The translations under genes and the position numbers were made by a program. Positions 1-36,286 of a stretch of DNA of 36,286 bases are shown here, piece after piece (the stretch's first letter is position 1; each line of letters begins with the position of its first letter). This DNA is from Candidatus Omnitrophota bacterium (GTDB lineage: Bacteria; Omnitrophota; Omnitrophia; JAHJGZ01), in NCBI GenBank assembly GCA_018823795.1, contig JAHJGZ010000048.1, positions 1-36,286 of the forward strand, read 5' to 3'. The notes below the pieces were generated by a model. The model was not told the DNA's origin and searched no databases. It was given only the letters and a program-made list of their open reading frames with translations.

Positions 1-840
1 AAATATCATATACAAAAAAATTCAAATGCGACCATTTCCCGCGTACCGCTCAGCCGGGATTACATGCGATGGTCTGATGCCTTAACCTATCACTACCGGG
101 AGGCGTATAAAAGCGAATGCCGCGCGCAGTTAAACAGCCTCTATGTTGCGATGACACGGGCGCAATACGAATTGCATGGATTTGTCTTGAAGAAAAATAA
201 TGGGCGGGAATTGAACCGTATTCATATGCTTTTTCCGCCGGCCGTGCGGGCCATCGGCAAAAAAAGGAACTATCCCCTCGAGGGGGCGCCGCACAATACA
301 ACGCTTCTCCATCTTGAGCCGACGCCGTACCATTCATGGATGGAACTTTTGCGCGATGAATTTATTGACGCATCAGTGCTTCTCGGGCGTAAACATATTT
401 TGCACGGTAAGGTGTTACACGCGGCACTCGCCCATATCGGAAACCTTACGGGAAAAGACAAAGAAGCATCAATACAACACGCGCTCGATAGGGCACGTGC
501 CTACTATCCTTCAATACACGAATGGGCGCATGTAGAAACGGCTATCAGGAAGCTCCTCGATGATCCCCACCTTAAACAATTTTTTTATGTCGAGGGGGAC
601 GTGTTCCAGGAAAAAGAACTCGTCAGCAGCAGCGGCGCAACGAAGCGTGTCGACCGTCTTATTGTCACCGCAAGTGACGTCATTATCATCGATTATAAAA
701 GCCGCGAGGAGTCCAAAGAGTCGTACTACGAACAACTGCGGGAGTATGTGGCGCTTATGAAAGGGATATTCAAGAAACGGGTGGTCAAAGGCTTTTTGAT
801 ATTTTTAGACACGCTTCAGGCAGAAGAGGTGACGGAATGA
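1..840 (+). CDS. C-terminal part of AddA-like/UvrD-family helicase-nuclease (5' end outside window)
   Basis: Frame open from base 1; UvrD-type motif VI-like 'NSLYVAMTRAQYEL'; PD-(D/E)XK-like 'VDRLIVTASDVIIIDYKSR'; stop overlaps start of the AddB-like gene. Confidence 0.82.
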   Translation, partial: KYHIQKNSNATISRVPLSRDYMRWSDALTYHYREAYKSECRAQLNSLYVAMTRAQYELHGFVLKKNNGRELNRIHMLFPPAVRAIGKKRNYPLEGAPHNTTLLHLEPTPYHSWMELLRDEFIDASVLLGRKHILHGKVLHAALAHIGNLTGKDKEASIQHALDRARAYYPSIHEWAHVETAIRKLLDDPHLKQFFYVEGDVFQEKELVSSSGATKRVDRLIVTASDVIIIDYKSREESKESYYEQLREYVALMKGIFKKRVVKGFLIFLDTLQAEEVTE

Positions 841-3683
841 ATAAACGCCGGATCATTACCTATGCGTTAGAAGATGATTTTATCGGCAAACTCGCCGATT
901 TTATCGAGAGTGAGTTCATTAAAAAAGGAGCGGACCTTTCGCGTATCGCTATCGTCTTCGGAGGAAAACGGCCGTCGCTTTTTCTTAAACGGGAGCTTTC
1001 CCGGCGGATGAATACGAATTTTTTTCCGCCGCATTTTTTTACTGTCGATTCGTTTATTGATTATGTCTTGAATAAAAAAGACTCCGCCTCGACCGTATCC
1101 GAGATGGAGGCAGCGTATTACGTCTATACCGTTACAAAAAATAAGGCATCGGCACTCGCCCGGGGCCGAAACACGTTCTCTGATTTTCTTCCGTGGGCAT
1201 ATGAAATACTTTCGTTTATCGATCAACTGGACATGGAAGCTATCGATGATAAAAAATTAGCCGCTGCCGAAAGCAATGCGCGTATCGGCTATGATGTGCC
1301 TGACGAACTCAATAAGCTCCTGCGTCACATTACGGTGATCCGCGGCGAATATCACCGCCTGCTCCGCCAAAGGGGAAAACGTTCGCGTGGTTTACGATAT
1401 TGTGATGCGGCAGACGCGATCGATACGATCGATAGCAACGAATATGACCATATACTCTTTTGTAATCTCCTTTATCTTCACGAAACCGAGCGGAAAATAA
1501 TAAAGACGCTCTACGGGCGCGGGGCGACGTATCTTTTTTTTCAGGGAAACGCTTGCGAATGGAATACTCTTACATTGTGTTCTCAGATTTTTTCCGCGCC
1601 GATTGAACCGGAGAGTAAGTCAAGAAGGGGTGATCCTCAGGTTGAACTTCACGGCGGATTTGATGTTCATTCCCAAGTGAGCCTTATCGGTAAAATCCTG
1701 AAGGACGCGACGGACAATGAGGATACGGTCATCGTGCTTCCCAAAGCCGACGCCGTCATTCCGCTCGTCTCTGAAATAGCATCGCGTGAGAAAAATTTCA
1801 ACGTATCAATGGGGTATCCACTTCGAAAAAGTGCACTTTTTGCGCTCTTTAATCTTATTTTTAAGGCACAAAATACAACAAAAGGGAATACGTATTATGC
1901 AAAGGATTATCTTGCGGTGATACGTCATCCCCTTCTTAAAAATATGAAGATAGAAAATACACCAGCAGCTGTCATGCGTGTTCTTGTTCACAAAATTGAA
2001 GAAATTCTTCTTGGTATTGAGCCAAATGCGTTGGGTGGAACGCTTTTTATACGGCTTCATGATATAGAAAAGTCTAACGATTTATATACAGCAGCAGGTA
2101 ATACACTGAGTGCAATGGGTCATAGAAACATTTCCTCACAAACCTTACAATCAATTGTTGTGGCACTCCACGATATGTCTTTTGTGGTATGGGAAAGCAT
2201 CAATACGTTTTCTTCGTTTGCGTCGAGTTCTGAACTTTTTCTCAATCAGCTCATCAAAAAGTTGGATGAGCTTGATTTTGATAAATTGAATCTTAGTATC
2301 ATTGAAAAGATGTTTGGAATTATCGATGAATATCGAGCCGCAGAATATTGTAATGAACGATTTGAACGAGAAGAAATATTTTCAATTTATTTACAGCATC
2401 TTGAAAAAGAAAAAATACGCTTTCAAGGGTCGCCACTTAAGGGGTTGCAAATACTTGGCTTTCTTGAAACACGCTCCCTCAATTTTAATAAAGTTATTAT
2501 TATGGATATGAACGAAGGTGTTTTCCCCAATATAAGGCGGTACATGCCCCTTATTCCGCGTGACCTCATGATAGGACTTGGCCTCACACGCTTTCGTTAT
2601 GAGGAAGAAATCCAACATTATTATTTTATGAGACTCGTCCGTTCTGCAAGGGAAGTACATCTTGTCTATAACGGGAGCGAAGGGAAAGAAAAGAGCCGAT
2701 TTATTGAAGAACTTATCTGGGACAGAGAAAAGCGTGAAAATATACTTAAGCCTCTTGTTGAGAAAAAAGGATTTTACAAAGCAGACATGTTGCCAAAAAA
2801 AGAGGCAATAAGGAAAAAAGCCTATATTGTTAGTCACCTCAAGAACAATTTTACGTTTTCAGCATCATCCATTGATACCTATATTCATTGCCCTTTGCAG
2901 TTTTATTACAAATATGTGCTGCGTCTTCGAGAAAAGGAAGATTTTCTTGAAGATCTGGAGGCAGCGGATATCGGTACTTTCTTACATGATGTACTTGAGA
3001 TTGCCTTTACTCCATACATAGGGAAAAAACCAGTTATCGATAAGAAATTCCATAGTACTTTTACAAAATCATTCAATGAATATTTTGACAAGAAGATTGC
3101 CAAGAAAATGAAGTCGGATTCGTTTATGATTAAAGAAATCATGATCCGGCGTTTTAAAGAATTCTTCAAAAAAGAAAAAGAAAGAAACAGTCAGGAAGTG
3201 ATTGCGCTTGAGAAGCAATTCGATGAATCGCTGATGCTGGGTGAGTATACCGTGCCGTTTACTGCTAAAGTAGACCGAATCGACCGTTGTCATGATGGTT
3301 CAATTCTTATTATTGATTATAAATCTGGGACTACGGCTAAAATGATTCGCAAATTAAAAAATTTACGAGATGTTGATATCACTGACAGGAAAAAAATCGG
3401 TGAGGCAATACAGTCCTTTCAATTGCCACTTTACATTGAATTAGTAAAAAAACATTTCCCTGGCACTCCTATTGATGCAGTCCTTTATACGCTGCGTGAC
3501 AGCGCTCTTACCTCATATGCTGACAAGGTGGAGGAGTATCCGTTTAAAGAAAGTATGGCGATCTGTATGCGTGCCCTTAACACCATAATTGACGAGATCT
3601 ATAATCCTGCAATACCGTTTGCAGGGGATGATAGTGATGAACGTCAGTGTATGTATTGTCCTTTCAAGAACTTATGCAGCTAA
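837..3683 (+). CDS. AddB-like ATP-dependent nuclease subunit with C-terminal PD-(D/E)XK domain and probable Fe-S cysteines
   Basis: 948 aa; 'SSIDTYIHCPLQFYYKYVLRLRE', 'KVDRIDRCHDGSILIIDYKSG', C-terminal 'CMYCPFKNLC'; overlaps the AddA-like gene by 4 bp. Confidence 0.83.
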   Translation: MNKRRIITYALEDDFIGKLADFIESEFIKKGADLSRIAIVFGGKRPSLFLKRELSRRMNTNFFPPHFFTVDSFIDYVLNKKDSASTVSEMEAAYYVYTVTKNKASALARGRNTFSDFLPWAYEILSFIDQLDMEAIDDKKLAAAESNARIGYDVPDELNKLLRHITVIRGEYHRLLRQRGKRSRGLRYCDAADAIDTIDSNEYDHILFCNLLYLHETERKIIKTLYGRGATYLFFQGNACEWNTLTLCSQIFSAPIEPESKSRRGDPQVELHGGFDVHSQVSLIGKILKDATDNEDTVIVLPKADAVIPLVSEIASREKNFNVSMGYPLRKSALFALFNLIFKAQNTTKGNTYYAKDYLAVIRHPLLKNMKIENTPAAVMRVLVHKIEEILLGIEPNALGGTLFIRLHDIEKSNDLYTAAGNTLSAMGHRNISSQTLQSIVVALHDMSFVVWESINTFSSFASSSELFLNQLIKKLDELDFDKLNLSIIEKMFGIIDEYRAAEYCNERFEREEIFSIYLQHLEKEKIRFQGSPLKGLQILGFLETRSLNFNKVIIMDMNEGVFPNIRRYMPLIPRDLMIGLGLTRFRYEEEIQHYYFMRLVRSAREVHLVYNGSEGKEKSRFIEELIWDREKRENILKPLVEKKGFYKADMLPKKEAIRKKAYIVSHLKNNFTFSASSIDTYIHCPLQFYYKYVLRLREKEDFLEDLEAADIGTFLHDVLEIAFTPYIGKKPVIDKKFHSTFTKSFNEYFDKKIAKKMKSDSFMIKEIMIRRFKEFFKKEKERNSQEVIALEKQFDESLMLGEYTVPFTAKVDRIDRCHDGSILIIDYKSGTTAKMIRKLKNLRDVDITDRKKIGEAIQSFQLPLYIELVKKHFPGTPIDAVLYTLRDSALTSYADKVEEYPFKESMAICMRALNTIIDEIYNPAIPFAGDDSDERQCMYCPFKNLCS

Positions 3684-3816
3684 ATTTTTTTTTACCGTTC
3701 CGTATAAAGCAAATCAGATTACCACTTTCCAACCGTAAAACATTGAAATTAAAAGAGTTGTGCACATTATATCTGCCTTGATTTCCATGGAAAATAAGCG
3801 TATAATTTTCTGAATA

Positions 3817-4668
3817 ATGAACACACAAAGAAAACAAGAAATTACATTTGTTGCCATTGTTACATTTGTTTTTATATTTTCTGCTATTTTAGTACATTTT
3901 ACAAAACCGAGCATACGCGTGGGGGACATCAAAGGTGCAAAGAGCGGTTCTAACGAGACAAAAAAATATAAAACGCAAATAGGTGCGTTAAAAAAATCTA
4001 AAACCCAAATCGATACCGTAGAAGTAAATGGAAAAAATGTTGTCTATACAGTTTTAAATAAAACTCAAAAAAATGCACCATCTACAGCACGTTTAAAGCA
4101 GGATATATGTATCCCTGGATATGTTAGCGAAGAAAGGGTCAACGAAATATTGCATGCAATGTATCAGTTGTTATTAAAACAAAGGGGTGGAATGAATAAC
4201 GCACGACCGAATGAAATCTACATTTTTGTGTATTCATCAGAACAAAAATATAACGCAGATAAAAGTGCTTGGAAATCTTCGCTCCAAAAACAATATGACC
4301 AGAAAGAACCCAAAGTCATTCTGAATGAACAGCCGTGGTTTCCATTTAGTATGCGACAGAGTAGACGATTTGGTTTGATAGAAGGGGTGAGGAAGGGAAT
4401 ATATCGGGCCATATTGCGATCGGAAGATTTTGCAATAGAGGTTGCTCAACGATTACACCCGTTAAATAACGTACAATTAAATACTCCACAGTTCGCTATA
4501 ATTTTAAAAAAGCAACAGAGCGTACAACGTGAAATTGTACAGGAGCGATTTAAAATTTTATCAAATATGTATAATCTTACGGCAGAACAATTGCAAGAGA
4601 TAGAGCTTGAAGGGATTAATAATCATTGGCTTGACAATTGGCTCGTAGATGAAAAGTCGGCGGCATGA
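3817..4668 (+). CDS. Hypothetical membrane-anchored protein (single N-terminal TM)
   Basis: 283-aa ORF with N-terminal hydrophobic stretch 'ITFVAIVTFVFIFSAILVHF'; family not recognised. Confidence 0.7.
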   Translation: MNTQRKQEITFVAIVTFVFIFSAILVHFTKPSIRVGDIKGAKSGSNETKKYKTQIGALKKSKTQIDTVEVNGKNVVYTVLNKTQKNAPSTARLKQDICIPGYVSEERVNEILHAMYQLLLKQRGGMNNARPNEIYIFVYSSEQKYNADKSAWKSSLQKQYDQKEPKVILNEQPWFPFSMRQSRRFGLIEGVRKGIYRAILRSEDFAIEVAQRLHPLNNVQLNTPQFAIILKKQQSVQREIVQERFKILSNMYNLTAEQLQEIELEGINNHWLDNWLVDEKSAA

Positions 4669-4729
4669 GGCGATACGAGCAGCTAGAGATGTGTACGCGT
4701 ATGTACGAATACACAAGAAAGCAGAGAGT

Positions 4730-5185
4730 ATGAAGAAAATATTCATAGCATTCATTATAATGAGTATAGTGTTGGGCGGGCTTGTTTCACCTGTGTATGC
4801 ATATGAGCGAATAAGAAAGGTGAGTACCAAAAAACCATATCAAGAAGTGCCGTCGCAAGCGATGCGGGTTGCGGTAAAAAAACATATAATTCAAAACAGT
4901 GTCAATGGTATCTTTAACCTCTATGATAAAGTTAATAAACAGACACGGGGGTTGCTGCTTTCAAAAATACAGCGGGATGTTGGTAAAGTGGGTGTTTTCT
5001 ATTACGTGCGCACGAATTTTCAAGATGTTAGAACAAAGGAATCAGTAGTAATCGATTTTGATATAGATACTCGTGCACAAATGGTCAAGATAACTTCAGT
5101 CCATATCTATAGTGTTAACGGTAAAATACGCTATACGTTTAGTAACCATGCCAATCGTGTGTATATGACGCAGCACAAAAGATAA
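4730..5185 (+). CDS. Hypothetical secreted protein with signal peptide
   Basis: ORF track start is 4649, but internal ATG at 4730 gives a classical signal peptide 'MKKIFIAFIIMSIVLGGLVSPVYAYE'. Confidence 0.65.
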   Translation: MKKIFIAFIIMSIVLGGLVSPVYAYERIRKVSTKKPYQEVPSQAMRVAVKKHIIQNSVNGIFNLYDKVNKQTRGLLLSKIQRDVGKVGVFYYVRTNFQDVRTKESVVIDFDIDTRAQMVKITSVHIYSVNGKIRYTFSNHANRVYMTQHKR

Positions 5186-5223
5186 GAAATGTTTTGTTGT
5201 AACTAATATGGAGGAGGTGGATA

Positions 5224-5475
5224 ATGGATGAAAAACTGATCGGGAAAATTAGTCACTATTTCGGGAAAATATCAGTAGCAATAATCGAATTGACCGATAC
5301 ACTTAAAATTGGTGATACTATACATATAAAAGGTGCCCATGACGATATGACGGAAGAAATAACATCAATGCAAATTGAGCATGAACCGGCACAGGAAGCA
5401 AAAGCAGGTGATTCTGTCGGTATCAAAGTGCCTGGCAAAATTCACGAAAATGATAAAGTATATAAAAAGAAATAA
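5224..5475 (+). CDS. Small translation-factor-like protein (EF-Tu/IF2 domain-2-like beta barrel)
   Basis: 83 aa; 'IGKISHYFGKISVAIIELTDTLKIGDTIHIKG...ITSMQIEHEPAQEAKAGDSVGIKV' resembles the EF-Tu domain 2 pattern; strong SD 'ggaggaggtgg' upstream. Confidence 0.75.
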   Translation: MDEKLIGKISHYFGKISVAIIELTDTLKIGDTIHIKGAHDDMTEEITSMQIEHEPAQEAKAGDSVGIKVPGKIHENDKVYKKK

Positions 5476-5579
5476 GGCGAGACGTTCATAGGCGCAGTTC
5501 CTGCCGAGAGATAGTGAGCAAAAACATTGAGAGCATAGCCCACCGTAGAATATAAACATTAATGTTTTATGTGTGAAGT

Positions 5580-5675
5580 ATGTCTTTTCGTTGTCCTGTA
5601 TGTTGTGCAGTATATGCATTGTCACTATTTGATGAAAAGCAATCATTCGTCTGTTCATGTGGCGGACAGATTTAA
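5580..5675 (+). CDS. Putative 31-aa Cys-rich zinc-ribbon-like microprotein (below ORF-track length cutoff)
   Basis: Manual translation MSFRCPVCCAVYALSLFDEKQSFVCSCGGQI*; CxxCC and CxCGG knuckle-like pairs; no clear SD. Confidence 0.35.
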   Translation: MSFRCPVCCAVYALSLFDEKQSFVCSCGGQI

Positions 5676-5693
5676 CTTGATGAAGCAGAAGGC

Positions 5694-5963
5694 ATGAATC
5701 AACTGACTGATATTGTTCAATCATATGAAATATGTATTGAGAATGCAAAAATATCAAAAATTAAACAACTGTCTGATGAAATAGCTGTGCTCATAATTAA
5801 TACTGACGTGGAACACGTTGATGTTGATATCAAAAAAGAAAAATTGAAAAAAATAAGCAATCGATATTTTCCTGATAAAATGTATTTATACGATTTGCTT
5901 TATGAATCTCGTTTTAAGCGGCTATGGAAGCAATTTCGTTCCAAAAGAGAGGGCAGTCAATAA
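5694..5963 (+). CDS. Hypothetical protein
   Basis: 89-aa ORF in the same direction as its neighbours, immediately upstream of the CxxCxxCC protein. Confidence 0.5.
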   Translation: MNQLTDIVQSYEICIENAKISKIKQLSDEIAVLIINTDVEHVDVDIKKEKLKKISNRYFPDKMYLYDLLYESRFKRLWKQFRSKREGSQ

Positions 5964-6247
5964 TGGATGATGAGGTGCGTTACGAGATATACCAACAAGA
6001 ACGGTTAGAACGGCGTGAAGTACTTTGTGGGCGTTGCGGTGAATGTTGCGGTGCTCATGATGGTGATCCATGTAGACAATTACGTTCTGATGAGAAGACG
6101 GGAAATTATTTTTGTGCAGATTACCAAAATAGACTTGGTGTACAAAAAACCAAGAGTGGTAAAAGTTTTACGTGTGTTACTATTGCAGAAAATTTTTACA
6201 AGGGTGCTCTTCGACCAGATTGTATGTATGTACGTTACTATAGATAA
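5963..6247 (+). CDS. Cys-rich CxxCxxCC protein (YkgJ-like)
   Basis: 'LCGRCGECCGAHDGDPCRQL...YFCADY...SFTCVTI...DCMYVRYY'; start at ATG 5963 preferred over listed 5924. Confidence 0.6.
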   Translation: MDDEVRYEIYQQERLERREVLCGRCGECCGAHDGDPCRQLRSDEKTGNYFCADYQNRLGVQKTKSGKSFTCVTIAENFYKGALRPDCMYVRYYR

Positions 6248-6309
6248 AGAGCAGAAAATGAAGTACAATAATATAGAAAAAATGTATTAGCTTTAAGAAA
6301 GGATAGAGT

Positions 6310-7389
6310 ATGGACAATATGATTGATATAAAGGAGTTATTAAAGGCTGCGGTTGCAAAGAATGCATCGGATCTTCATCTTACCGTAGGTCGGCCACCGA
6401 CATTTCGCATTAACCGTAAGCTTGTTTCATCATCGTATCCGGTACTGAACGGTACAGATACCAAGCAGATGATATATAGTCTATTGAATGACGAACAGAA
6501 GAAGCGGTTTGAGCGGGAGTTGGAATTCGATTTTTCAATTGCCGTTGAAGGAGTTTCTCGTTTTAGAGTAAATATCCATATGCAGCGTGGTTCTATTGAG
6601 GCTGCATTCAGGACAATAGCACAACATATTAAAACATTTGATGAGATGCGTTTTCCAAAAGTAATGCGAGACCTTACATTAAAACAGAATGGATTAGTCT
6701 TAGTTACTGGTCCTACGGGAGTTGGGAAAACGACGACCTTGGCGGCTATGATCGATCTTATTAATAAAGAAAAAGAAAAGCTGATTGTTTGTATTGAAGA
6801 TCCGATTGAATATTTACATAAACATAATAAAAGTATAGTAAAGCAGCGTGAAATCGGTATCGATACCCATTCGTTTGCTAACGCATTAAAGTATAGCTTG
6901 CGGCAGGATCCAGATGTTATTTTAGTCGGTGAAATGCGAGATATAGAGACTATTTCTATAGCATTAACTGCTGCTGAAACTGGCCATTTGGTGTTGAGCA
7001 CACTCCATACTGCAAGTGCACCACAAACGGTTGATCGATTATTAGACGTATTTCCTCCTGAACAGCAAGAGCAGGTTAAGGTTCAACTCTCAAGTTGTAT
7101 ACAGGGAATTATAAGCCAAACGTTGTTGCCTCGATATGATGGAAGGGGGCTCGTTGCTGCATTTGAAATAATGATTGCGACTCCCTCAGTACGGAAACTT
7201 ATTAAAGAACGGAAGACAGAACAGCTCATGACGTGCATACAAACCGGTGGTGAATTTGGAATGATTTCTATGGATGCCGCTATAAAAGATCTCTATCATG
7301 ATGGTTTGATAGATCTTGCAACAACACGATTACATGTCAAAGATGCATCAGATATTAAGGGAATGGATGGTATGGAGGGGGTAGTTTAA
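6310..7389 (+). CDS. pilT: Twitching motility ATPase PilT
   Basis: 'DLHLTVGRPPTFRI', Walker A 'GPTGVGKTTTLAAMID', 'CIEDPIEYLH', 'LRQDPDVILVGEMRDIETI', 'TGHLVLSTLHT'. Confidence 0.93.
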   Translation: MDNMIDIKELLKAAVAKNASDLHLTVGRPPTFRINRKLVSSSYPVLNGTDTKQMIYSLLNDEQKKRFERELEFDFSIAVEGVSRFRVNIHMQRGSIEAAFRTIAQHIKTFDEMRFPKVMRDLTLKQNGLVLVTGPTGVGKTTTLAAMIDLINKEKEKLIVCIEDPIEYLHKHNKSIVKQREIGIDTHSFANALKYSLRQDPDVILVGEMRDIETISIALTAAETGHLVLSTLHTASAPQTVDRLLDVFPPEQQEQVKVQLSSCIQGIISQTLLPRYDGRGLVAAFEIMIATPSVRKLIKERKTEQLMTCIQTGGEFGMISMDAAIKDLYHDGLIDLATTRLHVKDASDIKGMDGMEGVV

Positions 7390-7423
7390 TCGAAAGAGTT
7401 GATTTAAAAGAGAGAGTATAATA

Positions 7424-7981
7424 ATGTTATTGATGGATTATGTTACGGCGGGTATGGAGTGCTTAAGTCGGCATGAATATCAGCAAGCAATAGACTATTT
7501 CAAGAAAGTTATTGAATGCGATCAAAATTATGTGACGGCATATTATATTATTGGATTTGCTTATTATAAAGAAAAGAAATTTGAAGAAGCAATTTGCTAC
7601 CATACAAAAGCCATCAAACTTGATCCTGCTAATGCAATTGCGTATGGTAATTTAGGGCTTGTATATACGGCACAAGGTCATTACGAAAAAGCGGTTGACT
7701 GTTATGAACAAGCTATCAATTTGGATCCCGATTATACTGGTGCCTATGGTCACTTAGGACTGCTCTATCTGGCACGTGGTGAGGATGATAAAGCGTTAGC
7801 ATGTTATCAGAAAGGGATTGAGCTTGATCCTAATTATGCCCGTGCTCACTCAGGTCTCGGTCGCCTCTACGTTAAAAAAAATGATTTTGATAATACCGAA
7901 AAACAAATTTATAAACTGCGTGAACTGAGCGAATATGATTTAGCGGACGAGCTTGCAGAAGAATTGCAAATGCATACGTAA
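7424..7981 (+). CDS. Tetratricopeptide repeat protein
   Basis: Successive TPR units, e.g. 'AIAYGNLGLVYTAQGHYEKAVDCYEQAINLDP', 'TGAYGHLGLLYLARGEDDKALACYQKGIELDP'. Confidence 0.88.
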   Translation: MLLMDYVTAGMECLSRHEYQQAIDYFKKVIECDQNYVTAYYIIGFAYYKEKKFEEAICYHTKAIKLDPANAIAYGNLGLVYTAQGHYEKAVDCYEQAINLDPDYTGAYGHLGLLYLARGEDDKALACYQKGIELDPNYARAHSGLGRLYVKKNDFDNTEKQIYKLRELSEYDLADELAEELQMHT

Positions 7982-8025
7982 CAATTGTAACGAGAACATT
8001 GATTATTTCTAAAAGGAGGGATAAT

Positions 8026-8187
8026 ATGTCAAAAATATTTATCGTAATCGGTATTGTTTTTGTGGTGATGGCAGGTATTTCAAGATTTATCTATCCTGTT
8101 GCACTTGGCCTCCATGCAATTAAGCCGAGTAGCTTTTTGATAGCAACGAATACAGCATTATTATTAGCTATTTTATTTAAAAAATAA
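8026..8187 (+). CDS. Small hydrophobic membrane protein
   Basis: 53 aa MSKIFIVIGIVFVVMAGISRFIYPVALGLHAIKPSSFLIATNTALLLAILFKK; SD 'aaaggaggg' before ATG 8026. Confidence 0.6.
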   Translation: MSKIFIVIGIVFVVMAGISRFIYPVALGLHAIKPSSFLIATNTALLLAILFKK

Positions 8188-8447
8188 TTTCCACTGAAGG
8201 CTGAAGATGTCTCAATGGATAATGTAAGTAAACAACTGTTATATAAATGCTTTAGCCCTCGTTTATAATGTGCTAAAACGCTATATAAAAATACTCTTTT
8301 TTATACATCCCGTTTGTGTTAAAATCTATACCCTCCGTCAAAAGTTGTATATGATTTTATAAGTGTGATTATATTAATGATTTGAAGTAAACGCGTGCAA
8401 AGATCGCTGGAAAATTAATAAATAATCAAGAAAAAAGAGGTGTAAAC

Positions 8448-9515
8448 ATGGTACAAGCAAAAAAAATGTCTGGACGAAGTAAGGAAACAAATGAGGATGG
8501 CAAGACGGAGATTGCTGGGAAACACAAAGCTTTAGAACTTGCTCTTCAGCAGATAGAGAAGCAATTCGGAAAAGGTTCTATTATGCGAATGGGAGAGGAA
8601 AAACACGTTGATGTTCCATCAATACCAACTGGTTCGGTTGCACTTGATATTGCTACGGGGATAGGAGGTATACCTCGCGGAAGAGTTATCGAAGTGTTTG
8701 GACCGGAGTCAAGTGGAAAAACAACGTTGACGTTAAGTGCTGTTGCCCAAGTACAGCAAATGGGTGGTGTTGCAGCATTTATTGATGCAGAACATGCTTT
8801 AGATCCAATATATGCAGAAAAATTAGGTGTCAAACTCAATGATCTTTTAATTTCACAGCCTGACAATGGTGAACAGGCATTGCAGATTACAGAGATGCTT
8901 GTACGCTCCAATGCTGTTGATTTAATTGTGATAGATTCAGTAGCGGCACTGACTCCCCGTGCTGAAATAGAAGGCGATATGGGTGATTCACATATGGGGC
9001 TTCAGGCACGTCTCATGTCTCAAGCATTGAGAAAACTGACGGCTATCATAGCTCGTTCGAAAACAGCGCTGATTTTTATTAATCAAATTCGAGTTAAGAT
9101 TGGTGTTATGTTTGGTAATCCGGAAACAACAACCGGGGGGAAGGCATTAAAATTTTATGCGTCGCTTCGATTGGATATTAGAAGAATAGCTTCGATTAAG
9201 CATGGTGATAATATAATCGGCAATAGAGTTAGAGTAAAAGTAGTAAAAAATAAGTTGGCGCCACCATTTAAAAAAGCTGAATTTGATCTCATGTTTGATG
9301 AAGGTATTTCCCGCGCCTCCAGCATTATTGACTTGGCGGTCGAGACACAGATATTCGAAAAGTCAGGGAGCTGGATTCTTTATAATGGTGAGAAACTTGG
9401 GCAAGGACGGGAACGAGTTCGTCAGTATTTGAAAGAAAATAAAAATGTTTTGCAACTTGTTGAGCGGGCAGTTATTGAGAAATTTAAAGAGAAGGAAGAA
9501 AGTGTCACTGTCTAA
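8448..9515 (+). CDS. recA: Recombinase RecA
   Basis: '[12 protein letters not shown]', '[19 protein letters not shown]', '[37 protein letters not shown]', '[30 protein letters not shown]'. Confidence 0.98.
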
Positions 9516-29260: not shown

Positions 29261-30256
29261 ATGAGTATGGATAGTTATGTAAAGGCTGTTAATGATAGGG
29301 TAGAAGCGGAGTTTGGATTTGTAGAAAAATTGTTTGGCGAGATGAATAAAATTATTGTTGGCCAACAGTATTTACTAGAACGATTACTTATGGGGATATT
29401 AGCAAATGGCCATATTTTGATTGAAGGGGTACCGGGGTTAGCTAAAACGATGTCGGTTAAGACATTATCGCAAGCTATTGGCACAAAATTTCAAAGGATT
29501 CAGTTTACGCCGGATTTATTGCCCGCAGATTTATTGGGGACAATGATTTATAATCAAAAAGATGGAAATTTCTCTATAAAGAAAGGGCCGTTATTTGCTA
29601 ATCTCATTCTTGCAGATGAAATAAATCGTGCCCCCTCTAAAGTTCAAAGTGCGTTACTCGAAGCAATGCAGGAACGCCAAATCACTATAAGTGATACAAC
29701 ATTTCAACTTGAAGAACCGTTTCTTGTTCTTGCGACGCAAAATCCTCTTGAGCAACAGGGGACCTATCCTCTTCCTGAGGCACAGATTGATCGTTTTATG
29801 TTAAAATTAAATATTACCTATCCCACTCAAGAAGAAGAGAAGGAAATATTAGAAAGAATGACTGCCACTCAGTTGCCCGCCATTGAACAAGTCATAAACG
29901 CTGAAGATATTCTCAAAGTGCGTAACGTCGTCAATGACATTTATATCGATGAGAAAATTAAAGATTACATTATCAGGATTATATTTGCGACACGTAATCC
30001 AGAAAAGTTTAATCTCGCAGATCTCAAGCCATTAATTTCCTACGGTGCATCACCTCGTGCAAGTATCTATTTAGCCGTCGTTGCGAAAGCAAATGCATTT
30101 ATTAACGGACGTGGCTATGTTATTCCTGATGACATCAAAGAAATTGGCACTGATGTATTACGTCATCGTTTAATTGTTACCTACGAAGCTGAGGCCGAAG
30201 AACTTACTTCTGAGGATATTATTAAAAAAATATTTGATGAAATCGAGGTGCCATAA
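29261..30256 (+). CDS. MoxR-family AAA+ ATPase
   Basis: 'GHILIEGVPGLAKTMSVKTL', 'LLPADLLGTMIYN', 'LILADEINRAPSKVQSALLEAMQERQITI', 'LATQNPLEQQGTYPLPEAQIDRFMLKL'. Confidence 0.95.
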   Translation: MSMDSYVKAVNDRVEAEFGFVEKLFGEMNKIIVGQQYLLERLLMGILANGHILIEGVPGLAKTMSVKTLSQAIGTKFQRIQFTPDLLPADLLGTMIYNQKDGNFSIKKGPLFANLILADEINRAPSKVQSALLEAMQERQITISDTTFQLEEPFLVLATQNPLEQQGTYPLPEAQIDRFMLKLNITYPTQEEEKEILERMTATQLPAIEQVINAEDILKVRNVVNDIYIDEKIKDYIIRIIFATRNPEKFNLADLKPLISYGASPRASIYLAVVAKANAFINGRGYVIPDDIKEIGTDVLRHRLIVTYEAEAEELTSEDIIKKIFDEIEVP

Positions 30257-30340: not shown

Positions 30341-31216
30341 ATGATTCCTAAAGGAATAATTAAACAGATTAAGTATATTGAAATTCGCACCACTCAATTA
30401 GTTGATGCTATGTTTGGTGGTCAATATGAATCGGCTTTCAAGGGGCATGGAATGGAGTTTGCGGAGGTGCGTGAATATTATCCTGGTGATGATATACGTT
30501 CTATTGATTGGAATGTGACCGCGCGGACAGGTTTTCCTCATGTAAAGGTGTTTCATGATGAGCGAGAACTTACTGTTTTTTTTGCTGTTGATGTTTCTTC
30601 TTCTTTTCTTTTTGGAAGCGAGCAAAAGCTTAAATCGGAAATTGCAGCTGAGTTATGTGCCGTCCTTGCTTTTTCTGCTATTAGGAATAATGATAAAATT
30701 GGTCTTTTAATGTTTTCAGATACGATCGAAAAATATATTCCCATAAAAAAAGGGAAGCAACACGTTCTGCGAGTTGTCAGAGACATACTTTACCATAAGG
30801 TGGAACATAAAGGGACGAATTTGCAGTTAGGATTTGAAACGTTAAATAACGTACTTACACGCAAAGCGGTTGTTTTTGTAATTTCTGATTTTATTGATAA
30901 AGATTATGAATTATCTTTAAAAATTCTTGCACGTAATAACGATGTGATTGCCATAAACATCTTTGATCCACGTGAACGTACTATGCCATCTGTCGGGTAC
31001 GTAGAATTAGAGGATGCGGAAACAGGAGAAACGATGTTTCTCAATACAAAGAGTGAAGCATTTCGGGAACAGTATCAGAAAGCAGCAGCAGAAAATGCGT
31101 ATGCGAAAAATCATCTCTTTAATTCAAAAGGAATTGATAAGATCGATATTGATATTACACAATCGTATGTGAAACCACTTCGTGCTTTTTTTGAATCGAG
31201 AAAAAAACGATCATGA
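30341..31216 (+). CDS. DUF58-family protein
   Basis: 'GHGMEFAEVREYYPGDDIRSIDWNVTARTGFPHVKVF', VWA-like 'FFAVDVSSSFLFGS'; located after moxR. Confidence 0.93.
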   Translation: MIPKGIIKQIKYIEIRTTQLVDAMFGGQYESAFKGHGMEFAEVREYYPGDDIRSIDWNVTARTGFPHVKVFHDERELTVFFAVDVSSSFLFGSEQKLKSEIAAELCAVLAFSAIRNNDKIGLLMFSDTIEKYIPIKKGKQHVLRVVRDILYHKVEHKGTNLQLGFETLNNVLTRKAVVFVISDFIDKDYELSLKILARNNDVIAINIFDPRERTMPSVGYVELEDAETGETMFLNTKSEAFREQYQKAAAENAYAKNHLFNSKGIDKIDIDITQSYVKPLRAFFESRKKRS

Positions 31217-32199
31217 AAATTATTGTTATTATATGTTTTTGGATTTCAATTTCATTAGTATTTATTATCTCAAGCGATTCAGCAGTTGAGGAGAACGATG
31301 ATTACATATCAGTTGATGCAGGAATTGACAAGGCATTCATTGCCGTAGGTGATAAGATTAACTATGTGGTAACGTTACGATATAGTCCCACTATAAAGAT
31401 TCTGTCCGATATTGCATCTCCCCAACTCGAAACAATCGTAGAAATAAGTGATGTTAAAGAGTTTCCCTTGCAGACTAATGAGAAAGGGGATACCACTTTG
31501 TATAAGCAATTTGTTTTTGTTATATTTCAACCAGGTGAGTATAAGATCGAAGGGCAACGCATAAAATATATCGACAAGAATCGCGTAAAAAAAACTATTC
31601 AAGTTAATCCTGTGTATGTTGTAGTAAAGAGCGTTATTGGCGCAGATGATACCAGCGAAGATATCAAAATGGTAAAAGAGGTAGTATCTATTGAAGCCAA
31701 TTATACCGTTGTTTTTATTGTCGGGGCATTGCTTTTGATGGGATTGGTTGTGTTTTGCTCAATACTATTAAGAAAATATTATTCGAAAAGTGGAACTTTA
31801 ACAAAGGAAGAAGTTGTTCTCCCCCTTAATGAAGAAACGTATAAGGCATTGGATGTATTGCGTGATTCTACTTTAGTCGCTGAAGGGAAGATAAAAGAAT
31901 ATTATTTTCGCCTTGTTATGATCACTAAAAATTATCTTGCGCGTCTTTATGATGTGCCGATGATTGATAAGACAACGTCTGAATGCATAAAATTTCTTAA
32001 GAAGATTGCCATTGACGATAATGTGCAAAAAACAGTCAGAGATTTTATGGTTAGTTGCGATATAGTCAAGTTCGCTAAATACCGTCCTCCTACAAACGAA
32101 ATAATGAATAGTTACCTCATTGCAAAAACGATTGTAGGCAACACGTGGCGAATAAAAATGGATCAACGTGCAGCAGCAGACAACAATACGCAAAGATAA
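31213..32199 (+). CDS. BatD/DUF4381-like membrane protein
   Basis: N-terminal signal/TM, beta-rich ectodomain, central TM 'VVFIVGALLLMGLVVFCSILL', cytoplasmic C-terminus; sits between DUF58 and the VWA genes. Confidence 0.65.
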   Translation: MKIIVIICFWISISLVFIISSDSAVEENDDYISVDAGIDKAFIAVGDKINYVVTLRYSPTIKILSDIASPQLETIVEISDVKEFPLQTNEKGDTTLYKQFVFVIFQPGEYKIEGQRIKYIDKNRVKKTIQVNPVYVVVKSVIGADDTSEDIKMVKEVVSIEANYTVVFIVGALLLMGLVVFCSILLRKYYSKSGTLTKEEVVLPLNEETYKALDVLRDSTLVAEGKIKEYYFRLVMITKNYLARLYDVPMIDKTTSECIKFLKKIAIDDNVQKTVRDFMVSCDIVKFAKYRPPTNEIMNSYLIAKTIVGNTWRIKMDQRAAADNNTQR

Positions 32200-32230: not shown

Positions 32231-33220
32231 ATGGATATTGTATTTAAAAATCCCCAATTTTTTATATTGCTTTTGTTACTACCTCTTTTATACATTTTTA
32301 CTATAAAATCGAGACGAAGAAGTAGTATACGATTCTCTTCATTTTCTCTATTAAAGCAAATGCATCTTCCTAGTAGTTTTTTTGCAATCAGAATACCTAT
32401 TGTGCTCCGCTCATTAGTATTTTTGCTTATTGTTATAGCATTGGCGCGGCCACAAATACGTGAAGCGGAAAGAGAGCGTACCTCAGAAGGTATCGATATT
32501 ATTCTTGCGTTGGATATTTCAGGTTCTATGAAAGCAGAGGATTTTCAGCCGGCGAATAGACTTGAAATTGCCAAAGAAGAGGCCAACAGATTTATCAAGG
32601 GACGCCCGCATGACAGAATCGGACTTGTTATCTTTTCCCAGCAAAGTTTTACTCAATGTCCCCTTACGTTAGATCACGATGTTCTGTGTAATTTATTAAG
32701 TGAAATTCAGATAGGTATGATTCAAGACGGTACTGCTATCGGGTTAGCCATTGCCAATGCTATTAATCGCTTACAGGATAGCAATGCTAAGAGTAAAATA
32801 ATTATTTTACTGACTGATGGAGAGAATAATGCGGGACAGATAGATCCCCTAATGGCAGCTGAAATTGCACGAACATTTAACATTAAAATTTATACCATTG
32901 GAATAGGAAAGGAGGGAATGGTTCCCTATCCGGTGGATGACCCCCTTTTTGGACGGCGCTACATGAATGTCGATGTTAAAATAGATGAAAAGACATTAAT
33001 GAAAATCGCTACATTAACAAACGGACTTTATTTTAGAGCTCGCGATCAGAAGTCATTAGAAGAAATTTACAAGGAAATTAATCGCCTTGAAAAAACTGAA
33101 ATGCAGGTAAAGGAATACGTGAGTTTCTTGGAAGTGTTTTCGTTTTTTATCTATTTAGCTTTAATGGTACTTATTATCGAGATTGTTGCAACGCACACTG
33201 TGTTTTTTAAAATTCCGTAA
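32231..33220 (+). CDS. BatA-like VWA-domain membrane protein
   Basis: MIDAS 'LALDISGSMKAEDF', 'RIGLVIFSQQSF', 'LLTDGENNAG'; N-terminal TMs and C-terminal TM. Confidence 0.92.
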   Translation: MDIVFKNPQFFILLLLLPLLYIFTIKSRRRSSIRFSSFSLLKQMHLPSSFFAIRIPIVLRSLVFLLIVIALARPQIREAERERTSEGIDIILALDISGSMKAEDFQPANRLEIAKEEANRFIKGRPHDRIGLVIFSQQSFTQCPLTLDHDVLCNLLSEIQIGMIQDGTAIGLAIANAINRLQDSNAKSKIIILLTDGENNAGQIDPLMAAEIARTFNIKIYTIGIGKEGMVPYPVDDPLFGRRYMNVDVKIDEKTLMKIATLTNGLYFRARDQKSLEEIYKEINRLEKTEMQVKEYVSFLEVFSFFIYLALMVLIIEIVATHTVFFKIP

Positions 33221-33245: not shown

Positions 33246-34241
33246 ATGCAGTGGTATAGCCCAAAAAACTTATTGATTGTATGGCTTATTCCATTCGTCA
33301 TATGGTTTATATATATCAGCCTCGAAAGAAAGAAAAGAGTGAAAGAGAAATTTGCACGGCATGAGACATTTAATAAAATTTCGTTAAATTATTCTGTAAC
33401 GAAAGAGAAGCAGCGAATAGTATTGTTTGTCGTCACGTTGCTTTTGATGGAGCTTGCACTTGCGCGGCCGCAATGGGGGGATCAAAAAGAACGAATAACT
33501 CGAAAAGGGGTTAATATTATGTTCTTGCTAGATACGTCAAAAAGTATGCTTGTTCAAGACATGAAACCAAATCGTATTCAGAATGCAAAACTAAAGATCC
33601 ATAATCTTGTAACGAAATTAAAAGGTGATCGCATCGGCCTTGTAGCATTTTCAAGAGATAGCTTTCTCATCTGTCCATTGACGCTCGATTATTCAGCTTT
33701 TAGACTTTTTCTTGATTCTGTAAACATTGATTCTATTCCTAATGAGGGGACCTCAGTTGCGAACGCGGTGAATGCGGGGATCACTTCTTTTAAAGACAAC
33801 AAACACGCGTATGATATTATGATCATTTTTTCGGACGGTGAAGATCATGAGGCCGGTATACAAGAGATGGCAAAGCGTATCCAGAAGCTTGGTATTCGCA
33901 TCTATGCGATTGGTGTGGGAACAACCAAAGGAGGTCCCATTCCTATACAGCATGATGATGTTGTCGAAAATAAGAAAGATAAATTAGGCAATATCATTTT
34001 TAGTCGTCTCGAAGATAAAACGTTGCAAAAATTAACGGACTCTTCAGAAGGTCTGTATTATCAAGCGACAGCAACGGATAAGGAAATTGGCTTAATATAT
34101 AATCATATAAAAACATTAGAGCAACAAGAGTTTAAGAATGTGATGATTATTAAAAAAGAAGATCACTTTCAAGCTCTTTTACTGGTAGCTTTTATATTGT
34201 TAGTAATCGAATTCATCCTTGGAGAGCGAAAAGTAAGATAA
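33246..34241 (+). CDS. BatB-like VWA-domain membrane protein
   Basis: MIDAS 'FLLDTSKSMLVQDM', 'RIGLVAFSRDSF', 'IIFSDGEDHEAG'; start 33246 (SD 'aaggagag') preferred over listed 33183. Confidence 0.92.
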   Translation: MQWYSPKNLLIVWLIPFVIWFIYISLERKKRVKEKFARHETFNKISLNYSVTKEKQRIVLFVVTLLLMELALARPQWGDQKERITRKGVNIMFLLDTSKSMLVQDMKPNRIQNAKLKIHNLVTKLKGDRIGLVAFSRDSFLICPLTLDYSAFRLFLDSVNIDSIPNEGTSVANAVNAGITSFKDNKHAYDIMIIFSDGEDHEAGIQEMAKRIQKLGIRIYAIGVGTTKGGPIPIQHDDVVENKKDKLGNIIFSRLEDKTLQKLTDSSEGLYYQATATDKEIGLIYNHIKTLEQQEFKNVMIIKKEDHFQALLLVAFILLVIEFILGERKVR

Positions 34242-34257
34242 ATTATTGGAATATACT

Positions 34258-36286
34258 ATGAAAATTTTGATATATGCGATTATCATTTTATTGACGCCGG
34301 TGTTGCTCTGCGGCTTTATTGATACGCTTTCGTCAGAAACGGAGGAAGGCAATATATATTATGAGGCGGGGGAGTATGAGAAAGCGATGGAAATCTATCG
34401 GCGAATGCTCATTGATCATCCCGATTCTATTGCTGTACGTTATAACATAGCAAATGTGTTGTATCAAGTGGGTAAATATAAAGAAGCGCTTATTGAGATA
34501 AATAAAATGCTCGAACGTACTGATGTTGTAGAAATGCGAGTGCGTTTATTATACAACAGTGGCAATGCGTATTATCGAGTTGGTGATTTTGATAAGGCGA
34601 TACGTGCTTATAAAGAATGTTTAAAATTAGATCCTTATGATGAAGACGCAAAATTTAACTTGGAATTTGTATTGCGCAAAAAACAAATCATGGAAGAAAC
34701 GCATGACCAACGGAAGATACAGAAAAAAAAGAAGATCAAAAAGGAAGACAACGGGACGGAAAAGAAACCAAAAATAATTACTCAAGATAAAGGCATCAAG
34801 GATCAAAAAGAGATAACGGAGAAAGCAAAAAAGAAGAAAAAAAAGAACAAGACCATGAAGAAGGGGCGGCCGTTAAAAGTGTTTTTAGATAGGGCGAAGA
34901 GAGGGACGTGGGCGGACTCAGACAAGAAGGCAGTTTCCCTCGAAGACGCCGACCATTTTTTTATTTCTGCATCTGAGAAGGGGATTTCTAAAATATTTTC
35001 ATATCGTATTGCAGACAATCGGCTAATACCATGTGGTTATTACGGAGGGCATCGTGATGGTATCACCTATGTTAATGCTACGGGATTATTCGATGAAAAA
35101 AATAACCCCATACTTATATCAGCTTCACGTGACAGGACGGTGAAGTTGTTTAGCTTTAATCCTGAAATAAAAATGACAAAAAAATTAGCGAGTTTTGACG
35201 AACATCGCAAGACGGTTAATTATGCACAATATACCGGCTTGACTGACAGTGAGGACAATTATATTTTTGTAACTGCGTCTGATGATGGGACTATTTCATT
35301 CTTTAGTTTCAATTTAACTACATATGCGACAAGGTTATTGTCGACTTATAGTGAATATCATGGCAATGTTACTGCGGTACGTTATGATGGTTTGACCAGC
35401 GCAGACCTTGACCTTATATTTGTTGCATCATTCCGACGCAATATAGTGCAATTGTTTAGTTTTAATAGTGTAACAAATAAGACGCAGAAATTTAGTAGCT
35501 TCGATTTGTATAAAGATCCTCTGAGCACGGTACGTTATACAGGTCTTACCCGTGAAAACGGTGATCATATTTTTGTGTCAGCGGTTCATAAAACAGTACA
35601 GTTATTTTCACTCAATATCGAATCAAAAAAAACAGAAAAGCTGGCAACTTATTTCTCTCACTCAGAAAAAGTTGTCGATGTCCAATTTACCGGGCTCATG
35701 CATTTAGAATCTGGTGATCCCCTGTTTGTAACTGCATCACAGGATCACACGGTACAGTTATTCACCTATAATATTGATGGCAATAAAACTAAAAAATTAG
35801 CAACGTATAAGGGACATATCGGCCCCGTTACATCGGTGCAGTATACCGGATTGATTGATACGGAAGGTAATCACATATTTGTATCATCGTCGGCAAGTAA
35901 TACCATTCATCTTTTCAACTATAATGAGCAGTCTAATGAAACAAAAACAATGACTATTTATCGTGGCCTTAAAGGTGAAGCTCTTTTTGTACGCTATATC
36001 GGGGTGTGGACAGTGGACGATGAGGATGCTGAGGATGATCGGGAAGATCAGGAAGATCAGGAAGAGGAAGAGGATAAAGAAGAAACGTTAGGGGAAGGGA
36101 AGGAAGATCAGGAAGAGGATAAAGAAGAAAAGCCAGGGGAAGGGCGGGGAGAAGAAGAAGACCAGGGAGAAGAAGGAGCGGACCAGGGAGAAGGAGCGGA
36201 CCAGGGAGAAGGAGCGGACCAGGGAGAAGGAGCGGACCAGGGAGAAGGAGCAGACCAGGGAGAAGGAGCAGACCAGGGAGAAGGAG
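34258..36286 (+). CDS. Bat-cluster TPR protein fused to a seven-repeat WD40-like propeller and acidic repeat tail (3' end outside window)
   Basis: ORF open from ATG 34258 to window end, absent from ORF track; signal-like 'MKILIYAIIILLTPVLLCG', TPR 'GNIYYEAGEYEKAMEIYRRMLIDHPDSIAVRYNIANVLYQVGKYKEAL', 'YNSGNAYYRVGDFDKAIRAYKECLKLDP', Lys-rich linker, seven repeats like 'IFVTASDDGTISFFSFN', Glu/Asp/Gly/Gln tail. Confidence 0.85.
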   Translation, partial: MKILIYAIIILLTPVLLCGFIDTLSSETEEGNIYYEAGEYEKAMEIYRRMLIDHPDSIAVRYNIANVLYQVGKYKEALIEINKMLERTDVVEMRVRLLYNSGNAYYRVGDFDKAIRAYKECLKLDPYDEDAKFNLEFVLRKKQIMEETHDQRKIQKKKKIKKEDNGTEKKPKIITQDKGIKDQKEITEKAKKKKKKNKTMKKGRPLKVFLDRAKRGTWADSDKKAVSLEDADHFFISASEKGISKIFSYRIADNRLIPCGYYGGHRDGITYVNATGLFDEKNNPILISASRDRTVKLFSFNPEIKMTKKLASFDEHRKTVNYAQYTGLTDSEDNYIFVTASDDGTISFFSFNLTTYATRLLSTYSEYHGNVTAVRYDGLTSADLDLIFVASFRRNIVQLFSFNSVTNKTQKFSSFDLYKDPLSTVRYTGLTRENGDHIFVSAVHKTVQLFSLNIESKKTEKLATYFSHSEKVVDVQFTGLMHLESGDPLFVTASQDHTVQLFTYNIDGNKTKKLATYKGHIGPVTSVQYTGLIDTEGNHIFVSSSASNTIHLFNYNEQSNETKTMTIYRGLKGEALFVRYIGVWTVDDEDAEDDREDQEDQEEEEDKEETLGEGKEDQEEDKEEKPGEGRGEEEDQGEEGADQGEGADQGEGADQGEGADQGEGADQGEGADQGEG
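36181..36286 (+). repeat. 18-bp in-frame tandem repeat gaccagggagaaggagcg/a encoding (DQGEGA)n
   Basis: Five full copies starting at 36181, 36199, 36217, 36235 and 36253 plus a 16-bp partial at 36271; array runs off the window edge. Confidence 0.95.

What the first reader, a model, noticed from the sequence alone, without database searches (positions are those of the whole stretch)
34258..36286. Unlisted Bat-cluster gene: TPR + Lys-rich linker + seven-repeat propeller + acidic repeat tail
The ORF track omits this gene because it has no stop in the window. It follows batB, where Bat clusters usually carry a TPR (BatC/BatE-type) protein. The TPR part is as expected, but it is followed by a strongly basic linker (KKKKIKKE...KKKKKKNKTMKK), a WD40-like propeller and an acidic tail. 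I do not recognise this architecture for a Bat-cluster TPR protein. A plausible reading is a scaffold in which the TPR docks to the BatA/BatB VWA complex and the propeller recruits another partner.
Basis: partly seen in the sequence, partly recalled or inferred. Interest (0 to 1): 0.72.

Follow-up and report, generated by a model that had tools for sequence, protein, structure and literature searches.

The report
Bat-cluster TPR protein with inserted propeller
In one uncultured bacterium, a standard membrane-complex scaffold protein (the BatC-type TPR protein) appears to have a complete seven-bladed, WD40-like wheel inserted in its floppy linker; none of its examined relatives has this, but it rests on a single assembly that breaks off inside the gene.

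Summary
At 34258-36286 (+) an open frame runs off the contig end. It encodes a hydrophobic N-terminus, TPRs, a Lys-rich linker, seven 51-aa repeats and an acidic tail of 18-bp repeats. A single-sequence AlphaFold model of the repeats is an all-beta propeller with 28 strands, matching WD40 folds such as Seh1. The gene follows moxR, a DUF58 gene, an unassigned ORF, batA and batB.

Its N-terminal part is an ordinary BatC-type TPR protein. Same-class relatives have TPR, a low-complexity Q/E/K/D/N linker and a conserved C-terminal motif ending in [KR]DW. In 28 of 28 measured relatives the linker is more positive near the TPR and more acidic distally. So the basic linker and acidic tail are largely standard. 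Only the propeller is new: it sits between the basic and acidic halves. No examined relative has it, and similar propellers turned up in only two other genomes of the phylum, both inside giant unrelated ORFs.

Caveats: one genome, missing 3' end, and a linker whose codon pattern looks frameshifted in places. A chimeric join or two adjacent genes are not excluded. The proposed scaffold role is plausible but untested.

The parts
29261..30256 (+). moxR (AAA_3 ATPase), first gene of the Bat cluster
   Evidence: PF07726 219.6 bits; PF20030 bpMoxR only 55.6 bits
30341..31216 (+). DUF58 / VWA_2 protein
   Evidence: PF01882 272 bits
31213..32199 (+). membrane protein in the position held by a similar ORF in relatives' clusters
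   Evidence: no Pfam or NCBIfam match; position and resemblance to ORFs in L040 and L043 by eye
32231..33220 (+). batA (VWA)
   Evidence: BatA and VWA Pfam; best NCBIfam NF047508 BatA, below cut-off
33246..34241 (+). batB (VWA)
   Evidence: VWA Pfam; best NCBIfam NF047506 BatB, below cut-off
34258..34347 (+). hydrophobic N-terminus of the TPR protein (signal peptide or membrane anchor)
   Evidence: sequence MKILIYAIIILLTPVLLCGF; relatives have an equivalent hydrophobic stretch ending in G-F/G-x
34348..34683 (+). TPR domain (BatC-type), all-helical
   Evidence: TPR_2 64 bits; NF047507 BatC 86 bits over residues 25-193; 34-43% identical to class relatives; pLDDT 79-95
34684..34935 (+). low-complexity, Lys-rich linker; parts 34693-34770 and 34828-34890 have codon statistics of another frame
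   Evidence: net charge +18; GC3 44 of 81 codons vs 27.5 expected; mostly disordered in the model
34936..36006 (+). seven WD40-like repeats of about 51 aa = seven-bladed beta-propeller
36007..36286 (+). acidic low-complexity tail with GADQGE 18-bp repeats; contig ends inside it

Best explanation
This is the BatC-type TPR protein of a moxR-DUF58-batA-batB-batC cluster into whose disordered, charge-graded linker a complete seven-bladed WD40-like beta-propeller has been inserted. Shown by sequence: domain order, one uninterrupted frame, orthology of the TPR part, absence of the propeller in the relatives examined. Inferred: the protein is exported or membrane-anchored by its hydrophobic N-terminus; the TPR binds within the BatA/BatB membrane complex, as proposed for Bat TPR proteins; the propeller, on a flexible tether, adds a rigid protein-binding surface that captures an extra client or partner. 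The canonical C-terminal motif (MSxExAxRILxAL...KDW) is expected beyond the contig end.
For: TPR part is 34-43% identical to BatC-type proteins next to batB in class relatives. Their linkers are 130-440 aa of Q/E/K/D/N-rich sequence with no globular domain, followed by the [KR]DW C-terminus. Linker charge runs from positive to acidic in 28 of 28, so the window's basic linker and acidic tail correspond to the two halves with the propeller between. Frame 1 scores best in the TPR, propeller and tail, and GC3 is normal in TPR and propeller, so both fit this genome. Propeller supported by Pfam, repeat statistics, AlphaFold2 and Foldseek. TPR/VWA complex role of Bat proteins: PMC3557215.
Against: A single genome (250 contigs, 5.6% contamination), no second observation. 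The contig ends inside the gene; the C-terminal motif was not found on any other contig except that of the second Bat cluster. The linker is purine-rich low-complexity DNA, a place where assemblies and frames go wrong, and its codon statistics are abnormal. No evidence of expression or binding.
Confidence: 0.6

Rival explanations
1. Assembly chimera: a BatC 5' part and an unrelated propeller-containing ORF (for example a giant surface-protein ORF of this or a contaminating genome) were joined at the purine-rich low-complexity linker.
For: Junction lies in AG-rich low-complexity DNA; the nearest propellers in the phylum lie in giant ORFs of >1929 and about 6160 aa; no relative has the fusion; genome 5.6% contaminated; 34891-34935 is GC-rich with odd codon use.
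Against: TPR and propeller are in the same frame with no stop; synonymous codon use of the propeller matches neighbouring genes; the acidic tail after the propeller fits the distal half of BatC linkers; the propeller has no second copy in the genome from which a misjoin could have come.
Confidence: 0.2
2. Two genes: a single-base error or real indel in one of the A8 runs hides a frameshift. The TPR protein would really continue in frame 3 as ...KKEEKKEQDHEEGAAVKSVFR and stop at 34890-34892, and the propeller would be a separate gene starting near ATG 34855 or GTG 34879.
For: 34828-34890 has GC by codon position 0.24/0.19/0.62 in frame 1 but 0.62/0.24/0.19 in frame 3, the pattern of coding sequence here, and reads as BatC-like KKEEKKEQDHEEG in frame 3; frame-1 GC3 of 13/21 has p = 0.011.
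Against: A TPR protein ending there would lack the [KR]DW C-terminal motif seen in all completely sequenced same-class BatC proteins; the propeller gene would have no export signal and an acidic BatC-like tail; a similar frame-3 signature at 34693-34770 that reverts to frame 1 by 34771 shows that compensated shifts fit as well.
Confidence: 0.15
3. A component of a MoxR-vWA-beta-propeller ternary conflict system, whose third component has TPR and propeller regions and a membrane segment.
For: That architecture is described in PMC7159879; moxR here passes the bpMoxR Pfam cut-off (55.6 vs 27 bits).
Against: In that system the vWA protein itself strictly carries a propeller; BatA and BatB here do not. 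moxR scores 219.6 bits to the general AAA_3 family and its P-loop is GVPGLAKT, not GXXXTAKS. The cluster is a standard Bat cluster.
Confidence: 0.04

Closest known systems
BatC-type TPR proteins of bat (Bacteroides aerotolerance) clusters, e.g. Leptospira BatC (NF047507)
   Same: Position after batB, hydrophobic N-terminus, TPRs, charged low-complexity linker
   Different: Propeller inserted in the linker; C-terminal motif not seen because the contig ends; below the NF047507 cut-off (86 vs 175 bits)
Third component of MoxR-vWA-beta-propeller ternary systems (PMC7159879)
   Same: TPR and beta-propeller regions in one protein next to moxR and vWA genes, with a membrane-spanning segment
   Different: There the vWA protein carries its own propeller and moxR has a variant P-loop; neither holds here
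WD40-type propellers (Seh1, Sec13; bacterial WD40 proteins such as those on Nostoc plasmids)
   Same: Seven blades, TM-score up to 0.83 by target length; 27.7% identity to a Nostoc plasmid protein
   Different: Blades of 51 aa with a YTGL motif; low sequence identity; here part of a Bat protein
Propeller in the giant ORF of G014:C121 (L039)
   Same: 34-35% identity with the same repeat signature (TGL...FVSASxDxTVxxFTL)
   Different: Embedded in an ORF of >1929 aa with no TPR found and no Bat context on its 5.8-kb contig

Membership tests
BatC-type TPR protein of a bat cluster | Encoded next to batA/batB VWA genes and moxR | tested here: met
BatC-type TPR protein of a bat cluster | TPR domain homologous to BatC | tested here: met
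   E 1.7e-36 to class relatives; NF047507 E 2e-24, though below its curated cut-off
BatC-type TPR protein of a bat cluster | Low-complexity charged linker after the TPR | tested here: met
BatC-type TPR protein of a bat cluster | C-terminal motif MSxExAxRILxAL...[KR]DW | tested here: inconclusive
   contig ends before it; profile found only the second cluster's BatC on C21
BatC-type TPR protein of a bat cluster | Interaction with BatA/BatB | not testable with these tools
   no experiment or co-folding
WD40-type beta-propeller | About seven repeats of four strands with WD40 similarity | tested here: met
MoxR-vWA-beta-propeller ternary system | vWA component fused to a beta-propeller | tested here: not met
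   BatA (329 aa) and BatB (331 aa) have only VWA and membrane segments
MoxR-vWA-beta-propeller ternary system | MoxR P-loop variant GXXXTAKS (often present) | tested here: not met
   GVPGLAKT in the translation; definition from PMC7159879
MoxR-vWA-beta-propeller ternary system | Third component with TPR and propeller regions | tested here: met
   but in a standard Bat cluster

The most novel reading that the evidence does not exclude
A real, fixed Bat-complex variant in which the TPR subunit carries its own WD40-type propeller, so that the complex gains a built-in substrate- or partner-capture module, probably outside the cytoplasm.
Probability: 0.5. Interest if true: 0.5.

Novelty: new variant of a known kind. 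Interest (0 to 1): 0.36.

Why it matters
What Bat complexes act on is unknown. A Bat subunit with a dedicated binding module would give a concrete handle (the propeller) to fish out a client. It would also show that the low-complexity linker of BatC tolerates domain insertion. Because it is a single, truncated case, it matters only if a second genome or reads confirm it.

Tried and rejected
Looked for the missing 3' end: GADQGE repeat pattern (only this contig), the C-terminal peptide (nothing), a C-terminal profile (only the second cluster), BatD neighbours (C21, C222, C73: not adjacent), and the gene that follows batC in the one same-order relative, a YfcE-type phosphodiesterase (C165, with an unrelated gene upstream). 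The hit on C79 is only low-complexity similarity to the tail inside a 3145-aa ORF. Phages: no match; plasmids: only distant cyanobacterial WD40 proteins. A ternary conflict system was considered and rejected on cluster content. Recent internal blade duplication was considered: blades are at most about 71% identical at DNA level over about 50 nt, so the repeats are not a recent amplification.

Full report
What is there. The window is one whole contig, C68 of a 250-contig assembly. At its right end, ATG 34258 opens a + strand frame that reaches the contig end with no stop. Upstream lie moxR (29261), a DUF58 gene (30341), an unassigned membrane-protein ORF (31213), batA (32231) and batB (33246). 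The protein (676 aa seen) has a hydrophobic N-terminus, a TPR domain, a Lys-rich linker (net charge +18), seven repeats of about 51 aa and an acidic tail (net charge -39) that ends in 18-bp repeats.

The propeller is real. Pfam WD40 gives 53.9 bits against a cut-off of 27. The seven repeats score far above shuffled copies and show sharp periodicity at 51, 102 and 153 residues. A single-sequence AlphaFold2 model has mean pLDDT 71, pTM 0.71 and 28 strands in 7 x 4 order. The other four models scored lower (41-53), so details should not be trusted, but Foldseek against the PDB returns seven-bladed WD40 proteins such as Seh1 at E 4e-14. In the full-length model the TPR is confident (pLDDT about 80-95) and most of the linker and the tail are below 50.

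The TPR part is an ordinary BatC. Its best matches in 95 related genomes are the TPR proteins next to, or fused to, batB. In these, the TPRs are followed by a Q/E/K/D/N-rich low-complexity linker (about 130-440 aa) and a conserved C-terminus ending in [KR]DW; one relative (L013) is masked by N there and could not be judged. Measured linkers are more positive in their first 60 residues than in their last 60 in 28 of 28 cases. The basic linker and acidic tail of the window protein are thus an exaggerated form of the family's charge gradient, and the propeller sits between the two halves. Fusions of batB and batC are known (Leptospira biflexa, PMC3557215).

The propeller is not part of the family. 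Among 49 genomes of the class only the window and G014 have a similar propeller, and G014's lies in an ORF of over 1929 aa without Bat context. Among 386 genomes of the phylum only one more weak match appeared, in a 6160-aa ORF. BatC-type TPR matches in 126 of those 386 genomes mostly have open frames of about 250-480 aa, or 560-909 aa in the class, where most of those examined are fused to BatB; I did not inspect all of them for other inserted domains. The same genome has a second Bat cluster, split over C73 and C21, with a normal 286-aa BatC.

The weak spot is the linker. Frame 1 has normal codon statistics in TPR and propeller, but in the linker its GC3 is 44 of 81 codons against 27.5 expected from the window's own usage (p about 0.0002). 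The excess lies at 34693-34770 and 34828-34935, not at 34771-34827. At 34828-34890 the position-specific GC fits frame 3, where the peptide reads KKEEKKEQDHEEG, typical of BatC linkers. Either small compensating indels have accumulated in a disordered region, or the assembly has errors near the A8 runs. A single error would split the gene in two; paired errors would only change the linker's charge. These tests were made after looking at the region, so the p-values are descriptive.

Mechanism. Best reading (0.6): a BatC scaffold with an inserted propeller. The TPR would bind within the BatA/BatB membrane complex and the tethered propeller would capture an extra partner. The loop between the first two membrane helices of BatA is rich in K and R, which by the positive-inside rule would put the VWA domains, and the exported TPR protein, outside the cytoplasm. 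This is inference from sequence, not tested. Rivals are an assembly chimera (0.2), two genes separated by a hidden frameshift (0.15), and membership in MoxR-vWA-propeller ternary systems (0.04; PMC7159879), whose vWA component carries its own propeller, unlike here.

Verdict. Observation confirmed. Interpretation partly supported. New variant of a known kind, seen once, in a truncated gene. The giant ORFs recall Omnitrophota (PMC10066038), but this is a guess.

Noticed in passing
L053 (G000:C73) and L052 (G000:C21): A second Bat cluster in the same genome: moxR, DUF58, a peptidyl-prolyl-isomerase-like TPR protein and a BatD-like ORF on C73; batB, a normal 286-aa BatC ending KVLKDW, batD and a BatE-like TPR protein on C21. 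The same-order relative G001 also has two clusters.
   Followed up: partly
L038 (G000:C79) 1-9435: A 3145-aa open frame fills nearly the whole contig, with a KAKEKAKEKDKEKDKD low-complexity tract.
   Followed up: no
L039 (G014:C121) 1-5787: An ORF of over 1929 aa, open at both ends, contains propeller repeats related to those of the window and is otherwise without Pfam matches.
   Followed up: partly
34693-34935: Linker DNA has codon-position statistics that switch between frame 1 and frame 3, suggesting compensated frameshifts that turned an acidic/neutral linker into a basic one, or assembly errors near A8 runs.
   Followed up: partly
L051 (G000:C222) 4429-8150: A BatD (PF13584) and a BatE-like TPR-SH3 protein lie next to a ParB-like gene, away from batA/batB/batC.
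   Followed up: no
window 31213-32199: Cluster ORF between the DUF58 gene and batA has no Pfam or NCBIfam match although similar ORFs occupy the same place in relatives.
   Followed up: no
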